Shown piece by piece: positions 36,315-64,000 of a stretch of DNA of 64,000 bases (positions are counted from its first letter, which is position 1; each line of letters begins with the position of its first letter). A program made the translations under genes and the position numbers. The notes under the pieces were generated by a model, which was given only the letters and a program-made list of their open reading frames with translations, had not been told where the DNA came from and searched no databases. Origin of the DNA: Candidatus Protochlamydia amoebophila UWE25. GTDB taxonomy: Bacteria; Chlamydiota; Chlamydiia; Chlamydiales; Parachlamydiaceae. The stretch covers positions 868,001-932,000 of the forward strand of contig NC_005861.2 of NCBI RefSeq assembly GCF_000011565.2, written 5' to 3'.

Positions 36315-38921
36315 TTAATTTTTTCCTCCAGCAAACGATTTAAATCGAATTGTGTTTCCTTCCAATTCAAGTTTGATATGGCTATGAGGAGGAATTTTAC
36401 CTTCCAAGATTGCAGTCGATAACTGATTAATAACTTCTTGCTGAATATACCTTTTTAATGGACGTGCTCCAAAATGAGGATCATATCCTTCTTTGGCTAA
36501 GTGTGCCAATGCTTGAGGTGTCCACATTAATTCGACATCTCGATCTTTTAAACGCTTAGCAAGTAAATTCAGTTGAATGACGACAATTTTTTCCATATCA
36601 TGTTCACGTAGAGGAACAAAAGGAAGAATATCGTCTAAGCGGTTAATAAATTCTGGGCGGAAATGTTTTTTGATTACAGGATCTAAGACCAACATAATTT
36701 CGTCTTTAGCAAGGCCTTGTTTGTTTTGCTCCATCTTTTCTAATAAGAGGTCAGATCCAATATTTGATGTCATGATGAAGAGGGCATTTTTACAATTGAC
36801 TACACGCCCTTTACTATCTGTTAAGCGTCCATCATCGAACACCTGAAGTAAAATATTAAATACATCAGGGTGAGCTTTTTCAATCTCATCAAACAGAACA
36901 ACGGCATAAGGCCTTCTTCGCAGCGCCTCTGTTAATTGCCCTCCTTCCTCATACCCAATATACCCGGGAGGGGAGCCAATCAATTTAGAAACCGTGTGTT
37001 TTTCCATGTATTCAGACATGTCTAGCCGAATCAATGCTTCATCTTGGTTAAACAATTGAAAAGCTAACGCTTTAGCAAGCTCTGTTTTGCCAACGCCTGT
37101 CGGACCCAGGAAAAGAAAAACACCCATTGGCCGATTAGGATCACTTAGTCCAGACCTTGAACGACGAATTGCTTCACTCACAGCTGAAACAGCTATTTCT
37201 TGACCAACAACTCTTTTTTCAAGTTCGTTTTCAAGATGTAAGAGACGCTCAGCTTCACCCTCTAACATTTTATGAACGGGGATACCCGTCCATTTAGAAA
37301 CGATTTGAGCAATGAGGGACTCGTCTACTTCTTCCTGCAAAAGTCTATTAGGTTTGTTATTAAGCTGAGTCTGTGCCTCTTCAATCTCTTTTTGTAGTTG
37401 AGGGATCAAATTGTAGCGCAGCTCTGCTACACGGTTATAGTCGGCTTTACGTTCTGCAGCTTCTTCTTCAAAACGCAATTTCTCAAGTTTGTCTTTTTTC
37501 TCTTTTAAAGATTCGATAATTTTTTTCTCTTGATCCCATTGCTCACGTAAAATTTTCAGTTCTTCCTTGATTTGAGCAATGCGCCCTTCTAATTTTTCTA
37601 CTTCATTTTTAGCTAGGGGAGTGCTTTCTCGTTTCATCGCTTCTTGTTCCACAATTAGGCCCGCCAGCTCTCGTTCTTTATTGTCGATGGGAAGAGGGCG
37701 GCTTCCGAGTTGCATACGAATTAAGCTAGCTGATTCGTCGATCAAATCGATTGCTTTGTCGGGCAGACGACGATCTGTAATGTAGCGAGAAGACAATAAC
37801 ACGGCAGCGTGGATCGCAGACTCTGTGATATGCACCCCATGGTAAATTTCATATCTTTCTCTTAAACCTCTCAAAATTGCAATCGAGTCTTCTATAGTTG
37901 GTTCATTAACTAAGACAAGTTGAAAGCGTCTTTCAAGAGCAGCATCCTTTTCAATGTATTTTTGATATTCGTTAAGGGTAGTCGCTCCGATGCAATGTAA
38001 AATACCTCTCGCAAGTGCGGGTTTCAATAAATTGGCGGCATCCATCGCTCCATCTGTCGCGCCAGCTCCAATTAAAGTATGCACTTCATCAATAAAAAGG
38101 ATGATCTGCCCTTCGCTTTTCTCAATGTCTTGTAAAATACCTTTCAGCCTTTCTTCAAATTCTCCTCGGTACTTTGTACCGGCAATTAAACTTCCCATAT
38201 CCAACGCAAGTAGCTGTTTATTTTTTAAAGAATCGGGAATATCTTGCTGGACTATGCGTTGAGCTAATCCTTCAGCAATCGCTGTTTTACCAACTCCCGG
38301 ATCTCCAATAAGCATAGGATTATTTTTGGTTCGTCTACACAAAACTTGCATGGTTCGTCTAATTTCTTCATCTCTTCCAATCACAGGGTCGAGCTTACCT
38401 TGACGAGCCAGATCTGTGAGATTTTTGCAATATTTTTCTAGAGCTTGTAAATTTGATTCGGAGCTAGGAGAGTCCATATGACGATCACCTCGAATTTTTT
38501 TTATTTGTTCTTCCAGCTTTTCTAAAGAGATAGTAGTTTTCTTTTTCCAAGAAGCAAAAGGATCTCCACCATTTTTCCAATAAGAGATTAAAAAATGATC
38601 GCTGCTCGTATAAGTATCTTTCCAGCTTTGAGCGATATTTTGAGCATCGACAATGCGACTTTGTAGGCTTCTGGAAGGATTTGGGGCTTGCCCTCCACCC
38701 GAGTAAGTTGGTAAATGGTGAATATTGTTTTCAGTCTCTTGAAATAATTTTTGCGGATTTGTCCCCAGCCCATTTAAAAGCGAGTAAAAATATCCTTCTT
38801 TATCTTTGAGAAAAGCCCATAGCAGGTGATTTTCAGTAACTTCTGTGTGATTTAAACGTTGTGCTTCTGCAAAAGCGGCTTGAATAGCTTCCGCAACATG
38901 ATCTGTGAAATTTTGATTCAT
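36315..38921 (-). CDS. clpB: ATP-dependent chaperone ClpB
   Basis: ClpB is a disaggregase working with DnaK. The 868 residues have the N-terminal Clp repeat domain (1-150), the first AAA+ domain with [17 protein letters not shown] and LFIDEVHTL, the coiled-coil middle domain (about 410-530, rich in Lys/Glu) that marks ClpB rather than ClpA/C, the second AAA+ domain with [15 protein letters not shown] and [14 protein letters not shown], and the C-terminal domain. It starts at ATG 38921, preceded by GGAG. I see no CIRCE element upstream, so heat regulation is not visible. Confidence 0.97.
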
Positions 38922-47443: not shown

Positions 47444-50290
47444 TTAGAGTTCTTCTGAAACCCGATTTTTAAGCCCATAAAGCAATAAAGTATTTTTTAC
47501 ATCCAAATTTTGTGTATTCTTTAAACTCAATCCCCTTACGTTTAAATAATGAGGAGTCTTCCATAAAAGTTGAAATTTTCCTTTCTTTATTTTCCATATA
47601 CTTAATTCTTCAAAATCACTCATATGGTTAACAATTAAAAACTTACCTTGTGGTGAAAGTCGGATTATTGAACGACCAAAAGGAAGGATGAAGTGATCAA
47701 GTCTTTTCCTTTGATCTAAATTTACTAAGCAAAACCTGGATTTATCTTCGAAAAATTTTCCCTTATGCATTGAAATTACTATTTTTTCAATAGTTACCAT
47801 CCAGACCCCATCGTGGGATGTAACAAAATCAATGAACTGAGTTTTTGACTTGATGGTTTGCTTACTATGCGTTTTTTTGTCCCATACAACAAGAGCTTGT
47901 TCATTCTCTTGAAAATAGAACTTGGATTGTTGAAAATAAAAGTTGGATTGACCATACAAGCAAAATTCAGTGGAAAACAATTTCGTTAAACACTGAAACA
48001 CCTCTTGTACTTGTTTGGCTTCCCAATTAATCTCCCATATGCTGATTTGTCCTGTTTCAATATTGCTTAAAGCAAGAGTTGTGACGGGAAAAACATGATC
48101 AGAAAGAGTATATTTAATTTTTTCTTTGCCCAAAAGACAAGGAAGAGAAACAGCAAGTTTTTGTTGCGTGGAATCCATGTCCACTAATTGATTATGTTTT
48201 TCGAAATCTATTTCAATTAGCTTGAATTGGTTTTGGTAAATAAAGACAAGATAACGATTATCTTTTGATAATGAATAAGTTAAAAAAGATCCTGCATATG
48301 AAGCTTGTACTTTTTCATTTTCAACTTGAGAAATAGTAATTTTGTTTTTGCCATTGCTTTCGGAGGGGCATGTTCGAATACAATATTGGGCATTAGAAGA
48401 GAGACGGCAACCCCAATCCTCGAACCATCTCGGTGCAGAAAAAGGCTTCGGTAATTTTTTGTTTCTAAGTTTTTTCCCATTAAAAGTTTGATAGGTATAG
48501 AGCTTATTTTCAACTTTATGAAGAATGTAGGTGTTTTCTAGATTAGGCCAGTAAGTATTTCGGTGTTCATAACTCCAGAGAAAGACTTTTTGCTCATCTG
48601 GGGAAAAATACATATCACGAAGAGATAGAGGAAATTCTTTTTTGCCCACAAAAGCTTTTAAAGAAGCAATAGAAATTTGTTTTATTTTAGACTGGAAGAC
48701 AAACTGACCATTAGAAATAAAGTGTAGTGTATCTTTATAATTATCGCAATCATCAGAATTCTTTAAGCTTAACCGTTCGCTGAACTTTAATTTGAAATCT
48801 TTGTCACGTATGCGAAAAAAGGTTATACCATGACGCCCGCTAGTTATAAAGTAGGCCATTTGTGAGTTATCTGACAAAAATTGGAGGTGGGTTATAGTAC
48901 CTTCTTCAAAAAATAAAAATTTTTTTTGATTATTTTTTGTACTCCAACTATGTACTTCACTTTTACTTTCCCCAGCTATAGCCCTATTTATTATGACAAA
49001 ATGGCTTTCTTGCGGAGTAAATATCATATCATAGAACATTATATTGCCTGGCGCTATTTTCTTCTTTTCAGATAGCTGAAATACCAAACCTTGTTTTACT
49101 TCTTCTAAATCAGGGAGGGTATAAAATTTGACACATTCTCCTCTTAAGCATTCTCTCGCATGTTCTATTACAAGAATAGCGATAATAGAATTTTTAGGGG
49201 CATAGCGGCTAGCAATTACCGAGAAGCCCATTATTATTTTTTTTTTGACTGGCTTTGGTTGAAGTTGAGGAATATGGAGGGTATTAAAATTTATTTGCCA
49301 AAGGCAAATTTCTATTTTTGGCATAGGAGAAAACTGGTCTTTTATGCCTACAGTAATAAGCATTTTTTCATCTTGAGTAAGAGCCAATAAGGAAAAAAAT
49401 TCAATATTTTCAATAAGCAGTGAATTGATCATTGTTAGAGGATTAGTTTTCCATATTTCAATTTTCCCATCCCTTTTACGAAGCAATTTATCTTTTTCCA
49501 TGCACGATGCTCTGAAAAGAAATTGGCCATTCTGAAAAAACTGGAGAAAATTGTACTTAGGGAACGCCGACTTTGGATTAACTCTTGTCGCCAATATTTG
49601 CGTTTGAGCTTCAAAAGTTTCCAAATTCCAAATATAGAAACTGTCCCAATCAACGGAAGCCAAATGCTTGCCATCAGGAGACACAGCCATAGCGAGTATA
49701 TTGCTTAGATGATTTAAATAAGGGAGCTGGCCAAACTGGACGTCTTTAAGCTCCGCGCCATCAAGAATAACGTTTTCTAAGGAGCAGCCAGTAAAATCCG
49801 CCCCTTCTAGATTCGCTCCCGAGAAATTAGCTTTATTCAAATTTGCCCGGGCAAGCCTAACACCAGGGGCTTGAATCCCTCTAAAATCAGAGCCGACAAA
49901 AGAAAAATTGGTTTTTTTTAAAATCATCAAGGCATTTGCAGCTGCGACCTTTATTTTTATGCAATCTTTCGAAAGTTTGACAATCATTAAAAAAAAGCGC
50001 TGTTCTATTTTTAATTTTTTATATTTGCTTAAGCAATTAGTAGCTTCTTGTCTCACCTCGGCCCCATTCATAAGCCTTATATTATATCTTTCAACAATAT
50101 GTACTTTATCGATTAGCTGCTTCCATTTCCTACACACTAGCCTAGTTTGCTTTTGATCTAGCGATTCCAAATATTTGAATATTTCTAACCCAATTTTTAT
50201 AGCTAAAGGAGAAGGGAATGAGGGATTTTGTTTGTTATCTACAAAAATCTTAGAATTAATATTAGAATCTATGCTAGAGGAAAGCAGCAT
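47444..50290 (-). CDS. F-box, pentapeptide-repeat and WD40-like propeller protein (copy 3)
   Basis: 948 residues. F-box (PLAIKIGLEIFKYLESLDQK, LVCRKWKQLI), linker, pentapeptide repeats (ANFSGANLEGADFTGCSLEN) and propeller (LAMAVSPDGKHLASVDWDSF). The propeller is the most divergent of the open copies and has extra loops (RECLRGECVKFYTLPDL). Divergent propellers on a conserved F-box suggest different binding targets. ATG at 50290 has the conserved ribosome-binding site. The upstream flank keeps the promoter-like block. Confidence 0.84.
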   Translation of the reverse strand: MLLSSSIDSNINSKIFVDNKQNPSFPSPLAIKIGLEIFKYLESLDQKQTRLVCRKWKQLIDKVHIVERYNIRLMNGAEVRQEATNCLSKYKKLKIEQRFFLMIVKLSKDCIKIKVAAANALMILKKTNFSFVGSDFRGIQAPGVRLARANLNKANFSGANLEGADFTGCSLENVILDGAELKDVQFGQLPYLNHLSNILAMAVSPDGKHLASVDWDSFYIWNLETFEAQTQILATRVNPKSAFPKYNFLQFFQNGQFLFRASCMEKDKLLRKRDGKIEIWKTNPLTMINSLLIENIEFFSLLALTQDEKMLITVGIKDQFSPMPKIEICLWQINFNTLHIPQLQPKPVKKKIIMGFSVIASRYAPKNSIIAILVIEHARECLRGECVKFYTLPDLEEVKQGLVFQLSEKKKIAPGNIMFYDMIFTPQESHFVIINRAIAGESKSEVHSWSTKNNQKKFLFFEEGTITHLQFLSDNSQMAYFITSGRHGITFFRIRDKDFKLKFSERLSLKNSDDCDNYKDTLHFISNGQFVFQSKIKQISIASLKAFVGKKEFPLSLRDMYFSPDEQKVFLWSYEHRNTYWPNLENTYILHKVENKLYTYQTFNGKKLRNKKLPKPFSAPRWFEDWGCRLSSNAQYCIRTCPSESNGKNKITISQVENEKVQASYAGSFLTYSLSKDNRYLVFIYQNQFKLIEIDFEKHNQLVDMDSTQQKLAVSLPCLLGKEKIKYTLSDHVFPVTTLALSNIETGQISIWEINWEAKQVQEVFQCLTKLFSTEFCLYGQSNFYFQQSKFYFQENEQALVVWDKKTHSKQTIKSKTQFIDFVTSHDGVWMVTIEKIVISMHKGKFFEDKSRFCLVNLDQRKRLDHFILPFGRSIIRLSPQGKFLIVNHMSDFEELSIWKIKKGKFQLLWKTPHYLNVRGLSLKNTQNLDVKNTLLLYGLKNRVSEEL

Positions 50291-50757: not shown

Positions 50758-53700
50758 ATGATAGAACCTACAATATCTTTCATACCTTCTATTAAAACAC
50801 CATTAATTACTTTTCATCTAAATGGTAGGGTACCTAGCCATCTCAAATACGAATATCGGTTGCGTATAGTTTTAAAGCAAGCAATCACGGCGAAAGCAGA
50901 GGTGAAAACAGACAAGAAAACAGAATGGAAAATGTGGAAGGTAACTTTTCAAACCCATTCGACTGACTGGCTTTTAGCAAATATTTCCCGTCAAATGTTC
51001 CAACAACATCCTCAAATCAACCTAACAAAACAAAAAAGTGTTAAGCAGTTAAATCTAGAGTTTGGACAAGCTATCTCAAAAGAACCTGTTCACGTAATGG
51101 TAGAAATCGCCGGTAAGACTTCGCGAGGGGAAAATTATATTTTACACTTATGCCCAAGTAATCTTAAAGAAAGCCGAGCAACTCTCCAAGATAAAAAAGG
51201 AAAAACAAAGCCTATCGCTCTTGATTTGGGTTTCTTGGAGACATTTACTTTAGAAGATCTTCGATATCTTTTTTTAACAAAATTTGAATCATTTGTTCGA
51301 ATTCAGATAAAACAAAAAGACGGAGAAAAATCTTTATGTTTATCTGCTTTAAACTCATCGTCTCTTTCTTTGTCATCACTTAAGCATACAAAAGACTTGG
51401 TAAAATATCTCAAGCAGGGGAACTCCCAAGATCCAATTATAGCTATATTGCTTAAGAAGATGGTAGACGCCTTTGTTAACATGCAACAGCCTCGCTCAGA
51501 GGCCATCGAGGAGATGATTGATATCTTTGATAAATTGCAGCAAAACGACCAAATGCGCGTTTTTAGGAGCGTTACCAAACATTTTGTAGAAAATCCTTTA
51601 ACCGATCAAAATATTGTAAAAATTTTAAAGAAGATTCTGGTCTATTTTCAAAAAACAATTTACCAGCAGCAGGTGGATGCAGAAGAAGATAATGTTTTTC
51701 TTTCCTCAAAAATTTTAGACGAATTTGATGCGAACGATTTAGTAAAAATCTTAGTGATTTTGACAGAAAATTTGGTCCCGCAGGCTGGTTCTAAAAACAT
51801 CCCTTCCATTCAAAATCGCCTAAGAGCGCTCGTTGCTTTGCTAGAAACCATGATCATACAAGAAGTCCAAGGAGTTAACAAAGATGTTTATCTCAGTGCT
51901 TATAAAGCCATTAATGAAATAGCAAAGAGCAAAGACTTAAAAAATAACTTAGAGATGGACTATCTTGCTCATTACGGCAAAAACTCCTTTCTTCAAATTT
52001 CAGACGATACAACGGTTGGAGATACAGCTAAATCTACTTTGTCCCGTACTTTTTATCTTCTGCGCGGTTTTGCCAAAATCGCCGATAGCGTCAGTATCTT
52101 TGAGCCTTGGCACATAGTTTCTTTATTTGATTCGTTAGAGGATTTTAAAAAAGTTATATCTTACCGAGATTATCGCTTTAAAAAATGGTTTTCCAAAAAA
52201 CAATGGTTTACTAGTTTACTTGCCTTGCGTTTTACCCTTTTTAAAAAACCGGAAAAGTTTTTTAGTGAATTAGATAAATTAAATACACAAGAAGCAAGCT
52301 TTAGCAAAAAAGCAATGAGGGTGTTTCACCACCCTTTATTTCTTATTGGATTTGTTAATTTACTCAAAGAAGTGCTTCACATTCCTACCCATGTCCCAAG
52401 AGATCTTGCTTTAAAAAAGGTCGCTATCCAGCTTTTGCAGCGCATTTACCAAGATAATGTGAGTAAAGAAAAACCTAATTCTCCCATTTCTTTTAAGTTA
52501 GAGTCAGATGAACAACGAAATCAGATTTTAGAAATTGTCAGAGGCTACTTATTAGCTTGTAAGACCCATGGCGATCCAGCAGTGAGCCGCGTAACTGAAG
52601 AAGCCCTCAAAGAGTTGAACCTGCAAGATGTGATCTTTTCCCCAGCTTCTAAACCACAAAATGAACTTTTTGATCAAGCTGTGAAACAGATACCTATTTT
52701 CAATGCTTTAAAACAAATCTCGAAGCAATTAGAAAAAGATGATCAACTTAAAAAAGAAAGTGTGTATTACATTTCTCCAAATGTCCAGGAAGACGAAGGC
52801 TTTTCTGACTCATTTCCTTTAAAAAAAGCTTTAAAAAACTTTTTCGAAACTGAAAATACACCTGTCCTTTACCTAGAAGGAGACGGGGGAGCGGGGAAAA
52901 CGCTTACCATGAAAGTTTTAACCAACGAGCTATTAAGAAATTATTCTAGTACCAGCTATTTTCCCTTTTATACCTATTTAGGAAGTTTAAATAATCCTCT
53001 TGAAAAAATTATAGAAGAGACATTTGCTTTGCGCGGAATGACTCCAGATCAGGTAAATGAATTAAAAGAGCGTAAAGTAGTATTTATTTGCGATGCTGTG
53101 GATGAAATCAATCCTCTTAAGCTTCCTAGTGAAACCAAAAATATGAACATGTATGAAGCTAATAACTTTGCAGAGAAAGACATAGCCAAAGTTATCTTTG
53201 TCAGTAAGAAAGGACTGAATGATGCAAAACGCTTTGAACCTGTGGGAAAAACGATTCAAAAATTCATCTTAACACCTTTTGACGAACAACAAATTTTTGA
53301 CTATCTAGAAAAATTTGCACAAGAGCGTCAAAAAGAAGAAAATAATCTTTTTCTTACGTGGACTGCAGAAAAATACCGGGAAACTTTCAAAAAGCTACAA
53401 GATAGCGAATTATGGAAACTCATTACCAACCCTTTTAGATTGCATGTCATCGTCGAAGTTTTGCCTTTGATTGTGGAAAGTAGATCGGATATAAAAATAG
53501 AAGAGATTTTTCGACAACAAACGAAAGGGGAGATCGAGCAACATTTCTTTGACATTTTTGCCTGCGTCCAAGCTTATCGATCAAGCCTTAAAGAAAAACT
53601 CCTCCCTATTGGACCTGAAGAATTTTTAAAGTATTCTGCTCAGTTAGCTGCAGTCATGCAAAGGCATGAAATTTTCTCTATTCCACTTCAAGCTATTGCT

Positions 53701-53985
53701 GAGCAACAAGAAGATGTCAAAGATCTTTCAAACTCCTCAATAAGCACAAAAGAGGATATCGCTTTACAAGGAATTATTCAAAAATTCTTTAAGAAATCTC
53801 ATGAAAAATTTTATAAAGAATGTTTAATTTTAAAAAACCAAGGAGAATGGGCTTTTATGCACGGAGATTACCAGCTCTACTTTTCCCAGTTTGGTAATTA
53901 TTTCGGTCGCGCTAAAAGATTTGATGAAATTTATAACAAGTATAACTTAACTAAATGGATTAGACGGGATAACGACAGAAGTTAA
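50758..53985 (+). CDS. Large NACHT-type P-loop NTPase
   Basis: This 1075-residue protein starts at ATG 50758, with AAGGAAAAGC before it. Residues 1-190 are a beta-rich unknown domain, and 190-690 are predicted helical, repeat-like. The NTPase follows with Walker A YLEGDGGAGKTLTMKVL at about 706-714 and Walker B VVFICDAVDEINP at about 774-783; the Asp-x-x-Asp-Glu form is typical of NACHT. Then come LTPFDEQQI and NPFRLHVIVEVLPL, the usual NACHT helical region, and a short C-terminal end without repeats. NACHT proteins are signal-sensing STAND ATPases in eukaryotic immunity and bacterial antiphage systems. Here the effector and sensor parts are unrecognised. Confidence 0.85.
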   Translation: MIEPTISFIPSIKTPLITFHLNGRVPSHLKYEYRLRIVLKQAITAKAEVKTDKKTEWKMWKVTFQTHSTDWLLANISRQMFQQHPQINLTKQKSVKQLNLEFGQAISKEPVHVMVEIAGKTSRGENYILHLCPSNLKESRATLQDKKGKTKPIALDLGFLETFTLEDLRYLFLTKFESFVRIQIKQKDGEKSLCLSALNSSSLSLSSLKHTKDLVKYLKQGNSQDPIIAILLKKMVDAFVNMQQPRSEAIEEMIDIFDKLQQNDQMRVFRSVTKHFVENPLTDQNIVKILKKILVYFQKTIYQQQVDAEEDNVFLSSKILDEFDANDLVKILVILTENLVPQAGSKNIPSIQNRLRALVALLETMIIQEVQGVNKDVYLSAYKAINEIAKSKDLKNNLEMDYLAHYGKNSFLQISDDTTVGDTAKSTLSRTFYLLRGFAKIADSVSIFEPWHIVSLFDSLEDFKKVISYRDYRFKKWFSKKQWFTSLLALRFTLFKKPEKFFSELDKLNTQEASFSKKAMRVFHHPLFLIGFVNLLKEVLHIPTHVPRDLALKKVAIQLLQRIYQDNVSKEKPNSPISFKLESDEQRNQILEIVRGYLLACKTHGDPAVSRVTEEALKELNLQDVIFSPASKPQNELFDQAVKQIPIFNALKQISKQLEKDDQLKKESVYYISPNVQEDEGFSDSFPLKKALKNFFETENTPVLYLEGDGGAGKTLTMKVLTNELLRNYSSTSYFPFYTYLGSLNNPLEKIIEETFALRGMTPDQVNELKERKVVFICDAVDEINPLKLPSETKNMNMYEANNFAEKDIAKVIFVSKKGLNDAKRFEPVGKTIQKFILTPFDEQQIFDYLEKFAQERQKEENNLFLTWTAEKYRETFKKLQDSELWKLITNPFRLHVIVEVLPLIVESRSDIKIEEIFRQQTKGEIEQHFFDIFACVQAYRSSLKEKLLPIGPEEFLKYSAQLAAVMQRHEIFSIPLQAIAEQQEDVKDLSNSSISTKEDIALQGIIQKFFKKSHEKFYKECLILKNQGEWAFMHGDYQLYFSQFGNYFGRAKRFDEIYNKYNLTKWIRRDNDRS

Positions 53986-54192: not shown

Positions 54193-56965
54193 TTAGATGT
54201 CTTTATGAAAGTTTTTTTCATTTTGTAATTGAGAAAGCAATAAAGCATTTATTCTATCCAAGTTTTGTGTGTTCTTTAAACTCAATCCTTTTACATTTAA
54301 ATGATTGGGAATTTTCCACAAAGGAAGAAATTTTCCTTTCTTTATTTTCCATACGCTTAGCTTTACTAAACCATCGATATTTCGAAGAATTAAGAATTTG
54401 CCTTGGGGTGAAAGTTGGATTATCAAATCATGAAAAGGAAGAATAAAGCGATCAAGCTTTTCCCTTTGATCTAAATTCCATAAGCGAAACTTGTTTTTAT
54501 CATAAAGAAAGGGGCCCCTGCGCATTGAACTCGCTAGTTTTTCAACAGTCACCATCCAAAAGCCATCGTCGGATATATCAAAGTCAACTAACTCATTTTT
54601 AAACTTGATGGTTTCCTCGCTACGCGTCTTTTTATCCCATATAGCAAGTGTTTTTTTATCCTTTCGAAAATAAAACTTCGATTGGTCTAAAAAGAAAAAA
54701 TTAGTAAAGGACAACTCCGTTGAACATTGGTCCACTTCTTGTACTTGTTTGGCTTCCCAATCAATCTCCCATATATTGATTTGTCCTGATTCATCATTAA
54801 CCAAGGCAAGGGTTGTAATGGGAAATAAAGGATCAGAAAAAGTACATTTAATTTTTTCTTTGTCCAATAGACGGGGACAGAAAACAGTAGTTTTTTGTTC
54901 ATTAAAATCCATATCAACTAATTGATTTTGTTCATTGAAATCTGCTTTAATTAATTCAAATTGATTTCGATAAATAAAGAGGAGATAACGATTATCTTTT
55001 GATAAAGTACAAGCGAAAAAAGTTCCTATATATGAACTTTGCACATCTTTATTTTCAACTTGAGAAATAATAATTTTATTTTTGCCAGGGCTTGTATGAT
55101 AATATGTTTTAATGCAGTATTGAGCATTGGAAGAGAGGCGGCAACCCCACATCCACATCGGTTCAAAAGAAGGTTTCTGTAAGTTTTTATGCCCAAGATT
55201 TTTCCCATTAGAAGTCTGATAAATATAGAGTTTATTTTCAGCATTCCAAAGACATTTTGTTTGTCCATCTGGAGAATAATATGACTTATTTTCAACCATC
55301 CAAAGATAAATTGTTTGCTCATCTGAAGAAAAATGGAGAGCACTAATAGATAGAGTAAATTCTTTTTTACCTACAAAATTTTTTAAGGGAGCAATAAAAA
55401 TTTGGTTAGTTTTAGACCGAAAGACAAATTGACCATTAGAAATAAAATTTTGAGTTATAGTACTACTACTATTACTGATGGTTCGTTGATATAATTGATA
55501 TATATCATTGATTTTAGCAGAAAGTTGTTCGCTGAACTTTAATTTAAAATCTTTGTCACGGGTGCGAAAAAAGACTTCATCGTGTTTATCACCTGTAAAG
55601 TAGGCCATCCATGGGCTATCTGGCAAAAATTGGAGGTTAGTTATAGGACGTTTTTCAAAAAATAAAAACTTTTTTTTCTTATTTTTTATATCCCAGATAT
55701 ATACTTTATCTTTAACTTCACCAAAAACTTCACTAATTCCGGTAAGGATACTTATAATAAGCTGGCTCTCTTGGGAAGTAAATATCATATTGCTAACTTT
55801 GTATTTCTTTTTCATTTTCAGTGGCAACTTCCAATCTTGTTTAATTTCCAAGTCAGGAAGAGAGTAAAATTCAACGCAACTTCTTTCAAAAAAATATAGG
55901 GCAATAACAGAGATTTTGGGAGCATAGCTAGCCTTCTTTGCTAAGCCTGTTATTATTTTTTTCTTAGCTAATGTAAGTTGAGGAAGGCTTTGTTCGTTGA
56001 AGTCTACTTGCCAAAGGCAAATTTCTGTTTCTGCATCGCATAAAATTTCATTTTTTACGCCTACACTAACAAGCTTTGTTCCATCTCGAGTAAGAGCTAA
56101 TAACAAAAAAATGCTAACATTGTCAAAAATCAATCTATTAATCATTTCTAGTGGATTAGTTTTCCATATTTCAACTTTTAGTTTATGAGTCCGGTTTCCT
56201 ATCTTGCTATAAGCTTTAAAAAGAAATTGACCATCTTGAAAGAATAGGAGAAAAGTCTTCCAATCCCTTCCTGTTTCTAATGGTTGTTTTTCAACTTCAA
56301 ATGTTTCCAGATTCCAGACATAGAGATTTTTTGCACCAGTGGAGGCTAAATGCTTGCCATTAGGAGATAAAGCCATAGCGAGTACATTGTCTTGGTGGTT
56401 TAAATAAGGAAGCTTGCCAAATTGGACACCCTCAAGTTGCGCGTCATCGAGAATGGTATCTTCCAAGGAGCAGTCGGTAAAATTCGCCCCTTTTAGATTC
56501 GCCCCTGAGAAATTAACCTTGTCCAAAAGAGTTCGGGCAAGCCTAACACCGGGAGCTTGGATCCCTCTGAAATCAGAGCCGATAAAAGAAAAATTGGTTT
56601 TTTTTAAAATCATCAAGGCATTTGCAGCCGCGACCTTTATTTTTATGCAATCTTTCGAAAGCCTGACAATTGTTAAAAGAAAGCGCCGTTCTGCTTTCAA
56701 TTTTTCAGGGTTGCGCAAGTAATGAGTAGCTTCCTGTCTCACCTTGGCTGAATTCATAAGCCCTATATTATAGCTTTCAATAATATGCACTTTATCGATC
56801 AGCTGCTTCCATTTTCTACACACTAACCTAGCTTGCCCTCGATCTAGCGATTCCAGATATTTGAATATTTTTAACCCAATTTTTATAGCTAAAGTAGAAG
56901 GAAGTAAGGGATTTTGTTCGTTATTCTACAAAAATCTTAGAATTAATATTAGAGGAAATTAGCAT
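54193..56965 (-). pseudogene. F-box, pentapeptide-repeat and WD40-like protein (copy 4), frameshifted
   Basis: The start ATG at 56965 with the conserved ribosome-binding site is present, but an extra T near 56923-56925 turns the VDN codons into V-E-stop after 14 residues. After it the frame is open for the whole rest of the protein (to 54193), with pentapeptide repeats (VNFSGANLKGANFTDCSLED) and propeller (LAMALSPNGKHLASTGAKNL) intact. Only a GTG at 56823 could restart translation, losing the F-box. An insertion sequence sits just upstream. The clean remaining frame shows the damage is recent or that the frameshift is a sequencing error. Confidence 0.85.
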
Positions 56966-57035: not shown

Positions 57036-58053
57036 ACCTGAACTTTGGGTTTAGGTGTTTAGGCTTAAACAAGATACATAAAATTTGAATGACAAAAGAC
57101 CTCAACATGATTTAAAAGCATTGTTTACCACAACCATACTTAATCATGAGAGGTCAAAATGGATGTAACTGAACTATATTGTACAATTGATGATTTCTGG
57201 AAATCTTTCAAGCAAGAATGGGAAAAACACCTTATAGATTCTGGAAAGCACAAAAAGGGCCCAGAATCTGTGTTATCTCCAGCTGAAATGATGACCATCA
57301 TCGTTTTATTTCATCAATCAAATTACAGAACTTTCAAACACTTCTATAACTACATTAATTTTTATTTAAGAAATGAATTTCCAAAATTAATAAGCTATGA
57401 TCGATTCGTTTATTTAAAGAAAAATATGTTTGTTCCTTTATTTGCTTACCTCATGCACAGAAAAGGTAAAGTGACGGGAATAGCTTTTATTGATTCTACA
57501 TCAATAGCAGTATGTCATAATAAAAGAATTTCGCGAAATAAGGTATTTGCAGGGCTAGCAAAAAGAGGGAAGAACACTTCAGGATGGTTTTACGGTTTCA
57601 AATTACACATAATTAATAATGACAGCGGGGAAATTTTAGCTTTTCAACTTACACCAGGTAATGTATCTGATGTATCGATGGCTGAAACCCTTTCCAAGGG
57701 GCTGTTTGGAAAGTTATTTGGAGACAAAGGTTATATTTCTGGAAAATTAACAGAAAGTCTTCTAGAACAGGGCTTAGAGTTGTTTACGAGTGTACGAGCA
57801 AACATGAAACAAAAATTAATGACCTTTAATGATAAAATTTTATTACGAAAGAGATCTCTTATAGAGACAGTCAACGATCAACTTAAAAATATTTCTCAAA
57901 TTGAACATACTCGACATCGTAATATAGGCAATTTTTTGGTAAATATGCTAGGTGGGCTTGCTGCATATAGCCATCAACGGAAAAAGCCGTCTTTAAATTT
58001 TAGAGAAGAGAAATTCTGTGTAGCTATTGCTGCTTGAAACCCAAAGTTCAGGT
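57036..58053. mobile_element. IS982-family insertion sequence with 17-bp inverted ends
   Basis: The ends ACCTGAACTTTGGGTTT (57036-57052) and its exact complement (58037-58053) enclose one transposase gene. A 5-bp duplication (TACTA) flanks it. The size of 1018 bp and one-gene layout fit IS982. Perfect ends and an open transposase suggest recent activity. Confidence 0.93.
57159..58037 (+). CDS. IS982-family transposase
   Basis: The 292 residues carry the DDE triad pieces AFIDSTSIAVCHNKR (Asp), FGDKGYISGKL (Asp) and SLIETVNDQLKN (Glu), plus GFKLHIINND and IEHTRHR, the typical IS982 order. The start at ATG 57159 has AGAGGT upstream. The stop overlaps the right inverted end. Complete and apparently functional. 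Confidence 0.93.
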   Translation: MDVTELYCTIDDFWKSFKQEWEKHLIDSGKHKKGPESVLSPAEMMTIIVLFHQSNYRTFKHFYNYINFYLRNEFPKLISYDRFVYLKKNMFVPLFAYLMHRKGKVTGIAFIDSTSIAVCHNKRISRNKVFAGLAKRGKNTSGWFYGFKLHIINNDSGEILAFQLTPGNVSDVSMAETLSKGLFGKLFGDKGYISGKLTESLLEQGLELFTSVRANMKQKLMTFNDKILLRKRSLIETVNDQLKNISQIEHTRHRNIGNFLVNMLGGLAAYSHQRKKPSLNFREEKFCVAIAA

Positions 58054-58446: not shown

Positions 58447-58675
58447 TTACATAGGAAAGGTAGCGCTTCTGTTAATCCCATTGCTGTATAGATACATATC
58501 TACTTTATCTCTGTCAGCTGCGACAAGATTTATAAAAGGAGGATGAATAAAATTAACATCTAAATCATAATTAAATATGCTCATATTCAACATCAGTATT
58601 GGGAATAAAATAATTTTTCAGAGACGATAAAGTATTTTATTTCTATTCTCTTCACAGAAAAATTCTTCTATAATT
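58447..58675 (-). pseudogene. Decayed second copy of the RHS-associated small gene
   Basis: In one minus-strand frame the sequence reads IIEEFFCEENRNKILY, a stop, then ILMLNMSIFNYDLDVNF, PPFINLVAADRDKVDMYLYS, in step with ITEEFISEVNSNEMIRP, TNVDMGIVNYDFKGNV and PNVAIVCTDKDKIVYFYK of the intact gene next to it. It is the C-terminal half of a duplicated gene with at least one stop. Confidence 0.75.
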
Positions 58676-59209
58676 TCACTGTTTAATTTTTTTTAATGCT
58701 TCCTCGTAACTTTCGCGCTCATCTTTATAATCATAGATGTCTTTAGGTCCTTTATAGAAATAAACAATTTTATCTTTATCGGTACAAACAATAGCAACAT
58801 TTGGCGTTTCAATTACATTACCTTTAAAATCATAATTAACTATGCCCATGTCTACATTAGTGTTAGAAATAGGGTAATCTCTGAGATAGGGACGAATCAT
58901 TTCATTACTATTTACTTCTGAGATAAATTCTTCTGTAATTAAAACGATTAGCGTTTCTGATTCTTTTTTATTTAAGGGAAGGCCTTCTCTCCTAAATCCT
59001 AAAGTAAACTCATTTATACCATTATCAACCCCTCCTCCAATAGCCTCTAATTGCAAATTCTTCTCATATTTCATGCGTTTTGCAAAATCTTTGATAACTG
59101 CGTACATCAAATTACCTTCTTGGGACATTTTAGAATGATGCGATGGCATAGCAACCGCTTCGAAGATAATTAAACAAATTAATAATAAAAAATAAAATTG
59201 TTTATTCAT
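58676..59209 (-). CDS. Small secreted protein coupled to the RHS gene
   Basis: This 177-residue protein has an N-terminal signal peptide (FYFLLLICLIIFEAVA, cut probably before MPSHHS) and a mixed alpha/beta body (LQLEAIGGGVDNGINEFTLG). Its ATG lies within the last codons of the RHS gene; the frames overlap by 8 bases (ATGAATAA), so translation is coupled. I recognise no family. Position and coupling fit an immunity or accessory protein for the RHS C-terminal domain, but no function is shown. Confidence 0.75.
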   Translation of the reverse strand: MNKQFYFLLLICLIIFEAVAMPSHHSKMSQEGNLMYAVIKDFAKRMKYEKNLQLEAIGGGVDNGINEFTLGFRREGLPLNKKESETLIVLITEEFISEVNSNEMIRPYLRDYPISNTNVDMGIVNYDFKGNVIETPNVAIVCTDKDKIVYFYKGPKDIYDYKDERESYEEALKKIKQ

Positions 59210-62200
59210 GAAAAAATTTATTTGCGAATTTTTTTATTTCAGGTGCATAAGTTGGGCTTTGGAATGAATGATCCATAATGAAATATTCTGGATGGGCTTT
59301 CAAATTCACTACTGTGTCTCCACATCTCGAAATTTTATGATAATCTAACCAAGGAATAAGATCTTTATCACTCGTTAGATGCTTTACTTTGCCACATAAG
59401 CCATCCGCTATGTATCCTCCTGGAGCGACAGCAAGGACTTGAATCTGTTTTCTCAATTCTGGCGGATAGTCCATTAAAGCATTTCGAACATAAACAGCAG
59501 CTCGGCTATGGCAAACCATTAAAATCTTTCCTTCAGGAGTATCTTTGAAAAATTCATTCCAAGATCTATGTAGTATCCGCACAGATTCATAAGCAACATT
59601 GTTTATTAAAGCTTGTTTATAATGGTAAAAATCACTAAACATCCCTTGGGAAGCAGAGTATACCCCAAGTACATTATGGTTAGCAAGTAAACCAAGGTGG
59701 CCAAGGCTACTAAGGTGATCTTGAAGGCTATTATTCACACCATTCATAAACATTAAGAGTTTACCTTGAGTCATCTTTAAGTTATAGGGCATATTGGTTG
59801 AAGGATTTTTAAAGTCATTTAAATTATATACTGCGGATCGATTATAATAAATAGCATCAGGAATTTCAGAATCTGAATGGAAAAATTCATAATCTTTTTC
59901 AGATTCACAAAATTTATGATTCACAACATTGTTTAATGGGTCGTTATTTAGGTACTGATACACATTACTCGCAACAAAGCCAGGAATTCCAAATGCACCA
60001 TAGTCGCACAAAGCCATTGTGTAATCAAAAGTGGTATCTAATAAACCTGAAAAGGTGAATAGTCCAAATTGATCAAAGTAGATCAGAGGGCTATGATGCA
60101 CATAGGCGTAAAGGTTAGGACCGTCTTCAAAGCCGGAAGGATCAGCTGTGACCCAGCGACCGAGGTTGGGATCATAATACCGAAGACCAAATGCGACAAA
60201 TCCTGTCTCGGGATCAAATCGTTTGTTAGCATAACGCCAAGGATTTCCAACCTGAGATTCTTTAATTTCTTTTCCTTTCGCATTAAGGATTTGAATTTCT
60301 CCAAAAGCAGAATAACGATAAGTTTCAATTAGTTGCCCTTGTAAAGACTGTAACCCGCTAATTTGACCGAATAGATCACGAATGGGGACATAGACTTGAT
60401 CATTTAGTTCAATCGCAACAGGGGGATACTTTTCACCTTTCCCAAGAACTTTTAATTCAGTGATTTTTCCTTTAACGATAGCTCCAATTTCTTCCTGTCC
60501 TTGATGAAAGTACATCTCTTCTTTGACACCTTTTTTACTCAGGCGTCGATTAAAAGGATCGTAAGAGTAAGAAATTGTTTTTTGTTTGGATGTTACTGAT
60601 TGGAGACGGTCAAGGGCATCGTAGGTGTAAATGGTTTTTTCTGAGGCCGTTTGTTTCTCAATTAAATTTCCATTGGGATCATAGAGATAGGTTTCATCTC
60701 CTCTTTTTAAAAGTTGATTGAGGGAATTGTATGTGTGTTCTTGATCATCTTTAAGTAAGCGATTCGATAGGGAATCACATTGGTATTTATGATTAGCATG
60801 TCCTTTTTCACTTTGTAATTGATAGAAATCATCATAAGTATAAGAAGAAACTTTGCCATCCGTTTCATAGCTGAGCAGATTGCCGACCTCATCATACCCT
60901 TCACTTGAAATTGTTTGTTTGAAAAAAGGGGAGGCAACGCCGACACATCGATCTAAAGAATCATATTGATAATGAACAAGGCCATTTTCTCCTGGCGGTT
61001 GGGATTTAATTGGTGCACCTTGTAGATTGTGTTCTAAATCTTTATGCGTATAAGAGTACTTTTCGTTTACTAAACGATGAACAGCTTTTAAATCGACTGC
61101 GCTGAACTGATATTCAATTGTTGTTTGATCAGGTAGGGTGATAAGAATAGCTCTGCCAAGGCGATCGTATTGATAAGCAAGAATTAATCCATTTCCGAGT
61201 TTTTCTTGGATCATTCGTCCCATTTGATCATACAAACGCTCAGTAGAGCTTTCTGTAACATAGTCGACGACTTTTTTTACCAGTCCATTTAATGTATACT
61301 CATAATCGTAATCAATAGATCCATCAGAAGATTTTAATGTTTTTAAATAGCCAAATGAATCGTAGGTGTGAGATAAAATGGCTCCATTGGGTTTTGTGGT
61401 AGAAATTTTTTGACTTCGTTGATTATAGAGGTAATGAGTGATTTTTTGTTCGGGTGTATAAGCCGCTTCTGCAAGCATGATTAATTGATTATTTTCGTTA
61501 TAGCTGAAAAGGGTTTCGATGGAATGCGTTGTTTTTCCATCCACCATCACATGGTCAATGCGTTTTGCTTGATTGCCATTCAAATCGTAATAAAATTGTT
61601 GATGAGAAATCTCTATTCCAAAAGGAGTTTTTCGCTTCTCACTAACTAATCGATTCGCGTTGTCATAGGTAAGAATTGTCTGATAACCTAGGGCATCTGT
61701 TGTGGTGGCTTGCAAGACGCGTTGATTATAATGGTTTAAGTAGTAAGGATTATAAGCTGTGTGCGTCGTTTGACCAAGTGCATTGGTAATTTTTATCACA
61801 TTTTGATGGGCATCATAAGTTGTTTTTGTGACTTGTTCACCTGCCTTAACAACAATTTTATTTCCTTTCGCATTGTAAGTATATTGATTGCATTGATAGA
61901 GCTGATTTTGAGCATCTTCTAGCCTATCTTCAATAATACGATTGAGCCAATCATAGACTTTAATGGTACGTCGATAATTTGATTCATCAATCCATTCTTT
62001 AGTTTCAATTTCTCGTCCCAAACTATCGTAAAAGTACTCTGTCATTTGATCTTCTTTAATTTGAGAGACTAGGCGACCCGCAAAATCATAATGATAATGA
62101 GTGACGATTCCTTCTTTATCTATATAGGTCAAGGGGTGGAAAGCATTATACGACCAATGCTGTGCACAAAGAAGGTTTCCTTCTGCAGCATAAGTAGATT

Positions 62201-64000
62201 CGGTTAGAATTCTTCCTTGATAATCTTTTTCATAGTGCGTGCGTATGCCAGAGCGTTCAGTTTTTTGAATGAGAGTTCCATCTAGCAAATAAAGATATTG
62301 TTCGGATGATCCATCGGGATAGTGGGCAAGAATAGGCTGACCACGAATGTTATATTGAATTTTGGTTTGCAACCCTTTAGCATCTGTTACACAAGTTGGA
62401 AGACCGATAAGATTATATTCTCTATGAATAACGGGAGAAACAATTTCTCCAGCTTCATTTTCTATCTCGGGTAAATGTGTGGCAATTTGACGACCAAGAT
62501 CGTCAAATTCAAATGTGGTTTCTTGTCCATAAGGATCAGTTGTGGCGATACATTGGTTTAAATAATTATAGCGGTGCTTGGTCGCAAAATAGTTACCATC
62601 CGTATGCTTTTCTTCTTGCAAAACGAGACGATTGGAATAGTCGTAAGTATTATGTAAAGAAAATTGAGAACCCGGCTCTTCTTGGAAGATGAGATTATTA
62701 TAGTCATCATATTTTTTAGAAGAGACTTCACCCAAAGGATTAATCTCCTTGGTGCAGTTGCCATGGCCGTCATATTCCCAACTTTTTGAATAACAAAAAT
62801 CGCCTTGGTTATCATAAGTGTCTTCTTTTGCAAGATAACCTTCCAGGGTATAATGATAAATAACTTTGTTAAGCAACACTTCTTGTTTGGATTGCAAATC
62901 CAAATACATATGATCTACTCGTTCTGGCAAATGTACAAGTGTATGCTGCCTTGGGTAAAAGTGGGTAATAAAGCGTTTTGTTAAACCTGTTAAATCGTAT
63001 TCTAATAATCCTTTCCCATCATCAATCACTTTTTTAATGATGACATGATTTTGGTCATAAGTATAAAACTCTCTTTTTTGTACGATTTCATCAACGACAA
63101 TGAGCTTAGCGGCTAAAAGATCACTTCTTGGATAATAATGATAGACGGTAACAACGCCATTACTATCTGTCTCTGTCAAAAGATGATTTAACCCGTCTTC
63201 TGAATACGTACAAACTTTTTTTTCTTTTTCACAACCATTATTAATAGGAATATGATGTTTATCAAGCTGAAGTTGAGGGGTTGGCATTCCTGTCAAACAT
63301 CCCCATAATTCCTTTTTTTTAATGTTTCCTCGCTCATCGTATTTAAAATATCTCGCTTGATGCGTATTTCCTTGACCATCTTTGAGATATTTACAAATGA
63401 GATTTCCTTCATTCGAGGAACCCTCTTTCCCCCATACAAAACCTTCTTTACTAAATAAGTGATAATCGGAAGTGCCTTGATATTTTCGAATTTGTTCTAG
63501 GCGGTGTTCTTTTGTGAAGCAATAAGTTGTTTTATGAGAGTAGGCATCATAAACATCTGTTTTCCCTTCTTGAAGCTCGTTATCATCCTGTTTGATATCG
63601 TATACAAAGCGATGAGTTGTAATAGCTTTATCATCTGGCCCAACGGGTGCTTTTAATTGTCGCACACGGTCGATGCGATAATCATTTTTATCTTCAATAC
63701 AAATGGCAGGAAGAGCGTTATTAAATTGATAGAGATGCTTGTTTTTGTAGTAGCTAATATCTAAAAATTGCTTATCAGCAATTTTCTTTTTTGACATCAG
63801 GAGGAAATCAGATGAATCTCTTTTGACATATTCATAGCTTTCGTGAGGAAATCTAGGTTTTTCAACGTCTTTTACATATAAAATAGTGTCATTAGAATAA
63901 TTTTTAACTGTTTGTCGAGTAAAACTATATTTGACCACTTGGTTGTCGCTGGTTTGAAGATGAAGACGCTTACCAACTTGATCAAATCGAATCGTACTAA
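59202..64000 (-). CDS. RHS/YD-repeat protein with DUF687-like C-terminal domain (5' end outside window)
   Basis: The frame is open to the right edge, so the start lies outside; GTG at 63938 is not a true start, because STIRFDQVGKRLHL precedes it. About 1300 residues are YD repeats (YDSLGRE, YDPNGNL and similar) that build the hollow RHS shell. The shell ends with RYYDPNLGRWVTADPSGFED and NLYAYVHHSPLIYFDQFGL, the conserved core boundary. The last 285 residues form a different domain: VCHSRAAVYVRNALMDYPPE (Ser nucleophile-like), AVAPGGYI, TSDKDLIP (Asp) and IMDHSF (His). This resembles chlamydial DUF687 and a lipase-type triad. It probably is a released toxin or host-acting enzyme. Confidence 0.9.
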   Translation of the reverse strand, partial: STIRFDQVGKRLHLQTSDNQVVKYSFTRQTVKNYSNDTILYVKDVEKPRFPHESYEYVKRDSSDFLLMSKKKIADKQFLDISYYKNKHLYQFNNALPAICIEDKNDYRIDRVRQLKAPVGPDDKAITTHRFVYDIKQDDNELQEGKTDVYDAYSHKTTYCFTKEHRLEQIRKYQGTSDYHLFSKEGFVWGKEGSSNEGNLICKYLKDGQGNTHQARYFKYDERGNIKKKELWGCLTGMPTPQLQLDKHHIPINNGCEKEKKVCTYSEDGLNHLLTETDSNGVVTVYHYYPRSDLLAAKLIVVDEIVQKREFYTYDQNHVIIKKVIDDGKGLLEYDLTGLTKRFITHFYPRQHTLVHLPERVDHMYLDLQSKQEVLLNKVIYHYTLEGYLAKEDTYDNQGDFCYSKSWEYDGHGNCTKEINPLGEVSSKKYDDYNNLIFQEEPGSQFSLHNTYDYSNRLVLQEEKHTDGNYFATKHRYNYLNQCIATTDPYGQETTFEFDDLGRQIATHLPEIENEAGEIVSPVIHREYNLIGLPTCVTDAKGLQTKIQYNIRGQPILAHYPDGSSEQYLYLLDGTLIQKTERSGIRTHYEKDYQGRILTESTYAAEGNLLCAQHWSYNAFHPLTYIDKEGIVTHYHYDFAGRLVSQIKEDQMTEYFYDSLGREIETKEWIDESNYRRTIKVYDWLNRIIEDRLEDAQNQLYQCNQYTYNAKGNKIVVKAGEQVTKTTYDAHQNVIKITNALGQTTHTAYNPYYLNHYNQRVLQATTTDALGYQTILTYDNANRLVSEKRKTPFGIEISHQQFYYDLNGNQAKRIDHVMVDGKTTHSIETLFSYNENNQLIMLAEAAYTPEQKITHYLYNQRSQKISTTKPNGAILSHTYDSFGYLKTLKSSDGSIDYDYEYTLNGLVKKVVDYVTESSTERLYDQMGRMIQEKLGNGLILAYQYDRLGRAILITLPDQTTIEYQFSAVDLKAVHRLVNEKYSYTHKDLEHNLQGAPIKSQPPGENGLVHYQYDSLDRCVGVASPFFKQTISSEGYDEVGNLLSYETDGKVSSYTYDDFYQLQSEKGHANHKYQCDSLSNRLLKDDQEHTYNSLNQLLKRGDETYLYDPNGNLIEKQTASEKTIYTYDALDRLQSVTSKQKTISYSYDPFNRRLSKKGVKEEMYFHQGQEEIGAIVKGKITELKVLGKGEKYPPVAIELNDQVYVPIRDLFGQISGLQSLQGQLIETYRYSAFGEIQILNAKGKEIKESQVGNPWRYANKRFDPETGFVAFGLRYYDPNLGRWVTADPSGFEDGPNLYAYVHHSPLIYFDQFGLFTFSGLLDTTFDYTMALCDYGAFGIPGFVASNVYQYLNNDPLNNVVNHKFCESEKDYEFFHSDSEIPDAIYYNRSAVYNLNDFKNPSTNMPYNLKMTQGKLLMFMNGVNNSLQDHLSSLGHLGLLANHNVLGVYSASQGMFSDFYHYKQALINNVAYESVRILHRSWNEFFKDTPEGKILMVCHSRAAVYVRNALMDYPPELRKQIQVLAVAPGGYIADGLCGKVKHLTSDKDLIPWLDYHKISRCGDTVVNLKAHPEYFIMDHSFQSPTYAPEIKKFANKFFHE

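What the first reader, a model, noticed from the sequence alone, without database searches (positions are those of the whole stretch)
58447..64000. RHS protein with hydrolase-like tip, coupled secreted partner and a dead partner copy
The RHS core ends at the usual boundary and is followed by a 285-residue domain resembling DUF687 with a possible Ser-Asp-His triad. The next gene overlaps by 8 bases and is exported, and a decayed duplicate of it lies just downstream. Toxin-immunity loci of RHS type often keep such orphan immunity copies. In an intracellular chlamydia this may be a contact toxin against co-symbionts or a host-directed enzyme with a periplasmic protector.
Basis: partly seen in the sequence, partly recalled or inferred. 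Interest (0 to 1): 0.75.

Follow-up and report, generated by a model that had tools for sequence, protein, structure and literature searches.

The report
Chlamydial Rhs hydrolase toxin with exported immunity
An amoeba-associated chlamydia carries a large exported Rhs protein ending in an enzyme that looks like a lipid-cutting hydrolase, paired with a small exported protein that most likely protects the producer, and the same pair recurs across the chlamydial phylum, which suggests that these intracellular bacteria fight each other.

Summary
A 1835-residue Rhs protein with a signal peptide ends in a 285-residue alpha/beta-hydrolase tip. Its gene overlaps by 8 bases the gene of an exported 177-residue partner, and a decayed half-copy of the partner lies behind it. 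The pairing is not a local accident: tip relatives occur in 168 of 234 and partner relatives in 173 of 234 Chlamydiota genomes searched. All 51 assessable tips in open frames of 1000 aa or more, among the 100 best matches, are followed by a partner homologue, typically with a 4-base overlap. Ser185-Asp233-His264 is conserved in complete tips. Tandem partner arrays, displaced tip-partner cassettes and conserved orphan partners occur, as in polymorphic toxin/immunity systems. Partner divergence follows the tip, not the Rhs core. Best reading: a Sec-exported Rhs toxin with an envelope-acting esterase/lipase-like tip and a periplasmic immunity protein of an unnamed family. Toxicity, substrate and target (co-symbiont or host) are inferred, not shown. 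A foldase role for the partner is the main rival for its function. Rhs toxin/immunity is a known kind; the exported immunity family and its phylum-wide spread are new here.

The parts
59202..64000 (-). Rhs protein gene, 1598 of 1835 codons in the window. The first 237 codons lie beyond the window end; the gene's 5' end is at G000:C1:932709.
   Evidence: RHS_repeat E 1.4e-53, Rhs_assc_core E 8.5e-21, DUF6531 near the N-terminus, signal peptide MRWIIYILLNFILCLQTLTA
59205..60059 (-). C-terminal tip, 285 aa, alpha/beta-hydrolase fold, DUF687-related; probably released behind the core motif P-LIYF-DQF-GL
   Evidence: block pLDDT 80-98 from residue 71; VIA-align Z 13.5 to acyl-protein thioesterase 1 and 12.6-13.2 to cutinases; release site inferred from the known Rhs motif
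59505..59507 (-). Codon of the predicted nucleophile Ser185 (CHSRA elbow)
   Evidence: Ser in 68 of 68 partnered tips that cover the column; strand 178-184 precedes it
59361..59363 (-). Codon of the predicted catalytic acid Asp233
   Evidence: Asp in 70 of 70; Asp239 varies, so Asp233 is preferred; follows strand 224-230
59268..59270 (-). Codon of the predicted catalytic His264
   Evidence: His in 69 of 71, the exceptions being fragments or decayed orphans
58676..59209 (-). Partner gene, 177 aa, signal peptide followed by one alpha/beta domain; predicted exported immunity protein
59202..59209 (-). 8-base overlap of tip and partner reading frames (translational coupling inferred)
   Evidence: the modal overlap in homologues is 4 bases
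58486..58676 (-). Decayed second partner copy, C-terminal half only, with frameshift and stops
57159..58037 (+). Intact DDE transposase gene next to the locus, a possible agent of the decay
   Evidence: DDE_Tnp_1_3 E 5.1e-79

Best explanation
This is a polymorphic (Rhs) toxin-immunity locus. The Rhs protein is sent through the inner membrane by its Sec signal peptide. The Rhs/YD-repeat shell probably encloses the tip and cuts itself at its C-terminal core motif, freeing a 285-residue serine alpha/beta-hydrolase that most resembles small lid-less acyl hydrolases (acyl-protein thioesterase/lysophospholipase, cutinase, small lipase). The hydrolase probably cuts a lipid or acyl ester in an envelope. 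Because the toxin itself passes the producer's periplasm, the coupled 177-residue partner is exported too and blocks the enzyme there; it also guards against kin carrying the same tip. Spare partner copies behind the pair are remnants of tip exchange or protection against related tips. Shown by computation: pairing, gene overlap, export signals, triad, fold, arrays, tip-partner covariation. Inferred: self-cleavage, enzymatic activity, substrate, inhibition, bacterial target.
For: Of the 100 best tip matches in the phylum, 62 have a listed partner within 50 nt downstream on the same strand. Re-examining the other 38 adds 21, leaving 10 without and 7 cut by contig or locus ends. For tips in open frames of 1000 aa or more the count is 51 of 51 assessable. 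The modal overlap is 4 nt. The triad is present in 67 of 71 partnered tips, the 4 exceptions being fragments or decayed copies. 60 of 66 immediate partners have an N-terminal hydrophobic segment and 28 a lipobox-like motif; an internal control window passes the hydrophobicity test in 1. 15 of 59 tips with 1.5 kb downstream have 2-6 partners; 13 are followed by a displaced second tip (L042, L123, L144, L125). Ten of 12 loci chosen for a partner without a listed tip proved to have a tip or tip fragment just upstream. Partial Mantel: tip-partner given core r=0.37, p=0.017; core-partner given tip r=-0.06, p=0.65; 22 pairs. Structure. No VipB (T6SS sheath) match in the genome, and Rhs N-termini bear signal peptides, consistent with Sec export.
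Against: No toxicity, binding or enzymatic data exist. The window tip has Ala where nearly all relatives have the glycine of HSxG, and its N-terminal 70 residues are poorly modelled. 10 of 93 assessable tips have no partner although the triad is mostly intact, so either not every version needs protection or some are not toxic. A related but divergent Rhs tip in the same genome (G000:C1:37552-38235) has no partner. No route across the outer membrane was identified.
Confidence: 0.74

Rival explanations
1. The partner is a lipase-specific foldase or secretion chaperone (as Lif/LipH is for LipA), needed to make the exported hydrolase active, not an inhibitor.
For: Lif is also an exported, lipase-dedicated periplasmic partner (papers listed). 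Tip-partner covariation would be expected too.
Against: 2-6 tandem partner copies per tip, orphan copies kept without a tip, fusion of the partner domain to an Rhs core that lost its toxin, and partnerless tips with intact triads fit immunity better than a 1:1 foldase. The predicted partner fold is one small alpha/beta domain, not the extended helical Lif fold (the latter from general knowledge).
Confidence: 0.13
2. The Rhs tip is a host-directed enzyme acting on amoeba vacuole or membrane lipids, and the partner only protects the producer during export. (Overlaps with the best explanation on the protective role; it differs in the target.)
For: Obligate intracellular life; homologous DUF687 proteins in Chlamydiaceae are listed as putative inclusion-membrane proteins (PMC3048545); some standalone tips have a signal peptide and no partner.
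Against: Partner arrays, displaced cassettes and exchange of tips are the signature of conflict between bacteria; partner relatives were not found in the listed Chlamydiaceae genomes, which keep DUF687.
Confidence: 0.3
3. The locus is a non-functional relic: the CHSRA elbow is inactive and the pair persists by inertia.
For: Gly to Ala change at the elbow; decayed neighbouring copy; transposase next door; another Rhs in the genome has lost its toxin.
Against: Both ORFs are intact over 1835 and 177 codons and the triad is kept; Ala at this position also occurs elsewhere in the counted tips.
Confidence: 0.08

Closest known systems
Tox-ABhydrolase-2 of polymorphic toxin systems (Zhang et al. 2012, PMC3482391)
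   Same: Rhs-borne alpha/beta hydrolase tip; published motif NG..HSxG..D..H; reported from chlamydiae
   Different: Described there as without an immunity protein in the chlamydial case, with SUKH immunity elsewhere, and with no lipase link; here a dedicated exported partner is nearly always present
DUF687 (PF05095)
   Same: Homologous domain: 16 of 18 tips match, at profile positions of about 22-210
   Different: Chlamydiaceae versions are standalone proteins of about 580 aa with a C-terminal membrane bundle, reported to lack catalytic residues (PMC11878206) and listed as putative Inc proteins (PMC3048545); the tips are catalytically intact, Rhs-borne and partnered
Tle/Tli lipase effector-immunity pairs of type VI secretion
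   Same: Lipolytic effector acting in the periplasm with a dedicated immunity protein, sometimes several in tandem (Tli5b1-3 for PldB; PMC4899435)
   Different: No T6SS sheath gene (VipB) was found here and the toxin has its own Sec signal; sequence relationship to Tle/Tli families was not shown
Rhs/CDI orphan toxin-immunity cassettes (PMC3967940, PMC3150448, PMC10539506)
   Same: Displaced tip-immunity cassettes and orphan immunity genes behind the main gene
   Different: Exported immunity proteins, intracellular host, no recognised delivery machine
Lipase-specific foldase Lif/LipH
   Same: Exported partner dedicated to an exported lipase-like enzyme
   Different: Multi-copy arrays, orphan copies and partnerless tips; different predicted fold

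Membership tests
Rhs polymorphic toxin | Long YD/RHS repeat shell closed by the Rhs-associated core | tested here: met
Rhs polymorphic toxin | Variable toxin tip directly behind the core | tested here: met
   the own genome has three Rhs genes with three different ends
Rhs polymorphic toxin | Cognate immunity gene immediately downstream, covarying with the tip | tested here: met
   (position and covariation only; neutralisation not tested)
Rhs polymorphic toxin | Tip is toxic and the neighbour neutralises it | not testable with these tools
   Needs expression experiments
Tox-ABhydrolase-2 | Motif NG, HSxG, D, H in an alpha/beta hydrolase | tested here: met
   the window copy has HSRA instead of HSxG
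Tox-ABhydrolase-2 | Sequence membership in the published alignment | not testable with these tools
   The published alignment (supplementary file) is not held
DUF687 (PF05095) | Score over the curated cut-off | tested here: inconclusive
   Window tip not met on its own; 16 of 18 homologous tips match; relatives in G072, G078 and G101 exceed the cut-off
DUF687 (PF05095) | C-terminal transmembrane bundle (profile beyond about position 210) | tested here: not met
   Rhs tips align only to positions of about 22-210 of 537, and no helix bundle follows in the model
T6SS Tle/Tli pair | Delivery by a type VI secretion system | tested here: not met
   No VipB match in the genome; only this one sheath family was tried
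T6SS Tle/Tli pair | Serine hydrolase effector with exported immunity | tested here: met
   (by sequence and model only)
Lipase-specific foldase (Lif) | One foldase per lipase, required for folding | tested here: inconclusive
   Copy number speaks against it; the requirement cannot be tested

The most novel reading that the evidence does not exclude
The DUF687 proteins of pathogenic Chlamydia, thought to be catalytically dead putative inclusion-membrane proteins of unknown origin, descend from Rhs toxin tips used in warfare between environmental chlamydiae. In the host-restricted lineage the immunity partner and the Rhs shell were lost, the active site decayed and a membrane bundle was gained: a toxin turned into a host-interface protein. 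The direction of descent was not tested here.
Probability: 0.35. Interest if true: 0.8.

Novelty: new variant of a known kind. Interest (0 to 1): 0.62.

Why it matters
[quoted passage not shown] A conserved exported partner next to a Rhs hydrolase tip in a large part of Chlamydiota says that immunity was overlooked, and makes competition between chlamydiae inside one amoeba a testable idea. It also gives the unexplained DUF687 family a catalytically intact relative and a plausible ancestral function, and offers a Sec-exported Rhs with periplasmic immunity as a model for Rhs toxins without a type VI machine.

Tried and rejected
Pfam, NCBIfam and PADLOC for the partner: nothing beyond weak single-member hits. 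PDB by sequence for the partner: nothing credible. PDB by fold for the partner: no Foldseek match below E 0.001 and top VIA Z 8.0 to sex-pheromone-precursor C-terminal domains, then ring-building-motif domains, which may mean only a common arrangement; one weak hit was a Bacteroides T6SS effector-immunity complex (9jdi_C, Z 6.0), not taken as evidence. A T6SS route: no VipB in the genome. Acid at Asp239: rejected because it varies. The idea that the partner serves other kinds of tip: rejected for 10 of 12 loci tested. A literature search for Rhs in chlamydiae found only the 2012 survey and passing mentions. Possible bias: some loci used were fetched by partner matches, so the counts from the 100 best tips are the ones to trust. 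The 83/93 and 51/51 figures combine by hand.

Full report
CHECK OF THE OBSERVATION. The minus-strand Rhs ORF ends at 59202 and runs out of the window. The whole gene, read from the window's own genome (one contig of 2.44 Mb, Chlamydiota), is 1835 codons long and begins with a signal peptide. RHS repeats, a DUF6531 segment near the N-terminus and the Rhs-associated core are significant. The core ends at SPLIYFDQFGL; the next 285 residues are the tip. The partner ORF (58676-59209, 177 aa, signal peptide) overlaps the Rhs gene by 8 bases. Behind it lies a decayed C-terminal half of a second partner copy.

THE PAIR ACROSS THE PHYLUM. A search of 234 Chlamydiota genomes finds tip relatives in 118 with the single sequence and in 168 with an 18-row profile, and partner relatives in 173. 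The strongest tips sit at the end of Rhs ORFs of about 1700-1900 aa. Of the 100 best tips, 62 have a listed partner within 50 nt downstream. I fetched the non-edge remainder and rescanned it: 21 more have a partner, 10 have none, and 7 are cut off by contig or locus ends. So 83 of 93 assessable tips are paired, and all 51 assessable tips in open frames of 1000 aa or more (counts combined by hand; in one, G030:C8, the first copy is a fragment 166 nt away, followed by two full copies). The modal overlap is 4 bases. Partnerless tips are mostly short standalone ORFs, several with their own signal peptide (L092, L094, L095, L100). A pattern scan of 84,980 prokaryote species found 21 loci, mostly labelled Chlamydiota; two MAG contigs carry other labels, possibly binning or naming errors. 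That scan depends on one conserved peptide and does not prove absence elsewhere.

THE TIP. Ser185, Asp233 and His264 are invariant in complete tips; Asp239 is not. The AlphaFold2 model (pTM 0.80, blocks of residues 71-285 at pLDDT 80-98) has alpha/beta-hydrolase order: strand 178-184 then Ser185, strand 224-230 then Asp233, strand 250-253 then His264. The best solved neighbours are acyl-protein thioesterase 1/lysophospholipases (Z 13.5), cutinases and small esterases/lipases. A shared fold does not fix the substrate. Sixteen of 18 tips match DUF687, best 1.8e-16, although the window tip alone does not. In Chlamydiaceae, DUF687 is a standalone protein of about 580 aa; Rhs tips align only with its first 210 positions. 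A 2024 classification holds DUF687 to be an alpha/beta hydrolase without catalytic residues and with a membrane bundle (PMC11878206); a 2011 study lists several as putative Inc proteins (PMC3048545). The Rhs tips are thus the catalytically intact side of that family.

THE PARTNER. 60 of 66 immediate partners have a hydrophobic N-terminus (1 in an internal control window) and 28 a lipobox-like motif. No known family was found. The model is confident (pLDDT 92) and shows one alpha/beta domain behind the signal helix, without a convincing relative of known function.

SIGNS OF A TOXIN-IMMUNITY SYSTEM. Fifteen of 59 tips with at least 1.5 kb downstream are followed by 2-6 partner genes, and 13 by a displaced second tip. 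Examples: L122 (Rhs tip and six partner ORFs in a row), L123 (alternating orphan tips and partners), L042 and L144 (truncated tip plus partner behind the main pair). Partner divergence follows the tip but not the Rhs core (partial Mantel r=0.37, p=0.017, against -0.06, p=0.65; 22 pairs); shared ancestry is only partly controlled by this test. When partners without a listed tip were examined, 10 of 12 had a divergent tip or tip fragment directly upstream. In the window's genome there is also an Rhs core fused straight to a partner domain with the toxin gone (G000:C1 about 651.7-656.4 kb), and an orphan partner-like lipoprotein kept at 78-80% identity and beside the same neighbour gene in two congeneric genomes.

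MECHANISM. The Rhs protein has a Sec signal and the genome has no VipB sheath gene. A toxin that crosses the producer's own periplasm explains why the immunity protein is exported as well. I infer self-cleavage at the core, hydrolysis of an envelope or host acyl lipid, and inhibition by the partner. None of these was shown. The main rival for the partner is a foldase; copy number and orphan partners count against it. The target, sister chlamydiae or host, stays open.

COMPARISON WITH THE KNOWN. Zhang and colleagues (PMC3482391) described Tox-ABhydrolase-2 with the same short motif, noted a chlamydial case without immunity, and concluded that intracellular bacteria hold hardly any immunity proteins. 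That case may correspond to the divergent partnerless Rhs tip found here as well, but this could not be checked. The pair works like Tle/Tli lipase effector-immunity pairs (PMC4899435) and is arranged like Rhs/CDI orphan modules (papers), but lacks a T6SS. It is a Rhs toxin-immunity system by all features tested, with an exported immunity family not previously named in the sources searched.

Noticed in passing
L037:3688-8385 (G000:C1 about 651687-656384, +): A second Rhs gene of the same genome has lost its toxin: the core is fused in frame to a partner (immunity-like) domain, apparently by a deletion.
   Followed up: partly
L003:1387-2037 (G000:C1:139592-140143, +): An orphan partner-like lipoprotein of 216 aa, kept at 78-80% identity and beside the same neighbour gene in two genomes of the genus.
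   Followed up: yes
L006:1480-3684 (G000:C1 near 37552-38235, -): A third Rhs gene with a divergent hydrolase tip (AHSLGG elbow) and no partner; possibly the partnerless Tox-ABhydrolase-2 case of the 2012 survey.
   Followed up: partly
L094, L095, L092/L052, L100: Standalone secreted DUF687-like hydrolases with an intact triad and no partner in environmental chlamydiae; possibly host-directed.
   Followed up: partly
L138:1128-3569 and L139:802-2364: The same tip and partner pair on carriers of 813 and 520 aa without recognisable Rhs core motifs.
   Followed up: no
L013:2148-3308: A 386-aa partner version in which a partner domain is followed by extra sequence in the same ORF.
   Followed up: no
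window 47444-50290 and 54193-56823, -: Two similar large genes (F-box-like opening, pentapeptide-like and repeat regions by eye) flank a 1075-aa gene with a GDGGAGKT nucleotide-binding motif at 50758-53985.
   Followed up: no
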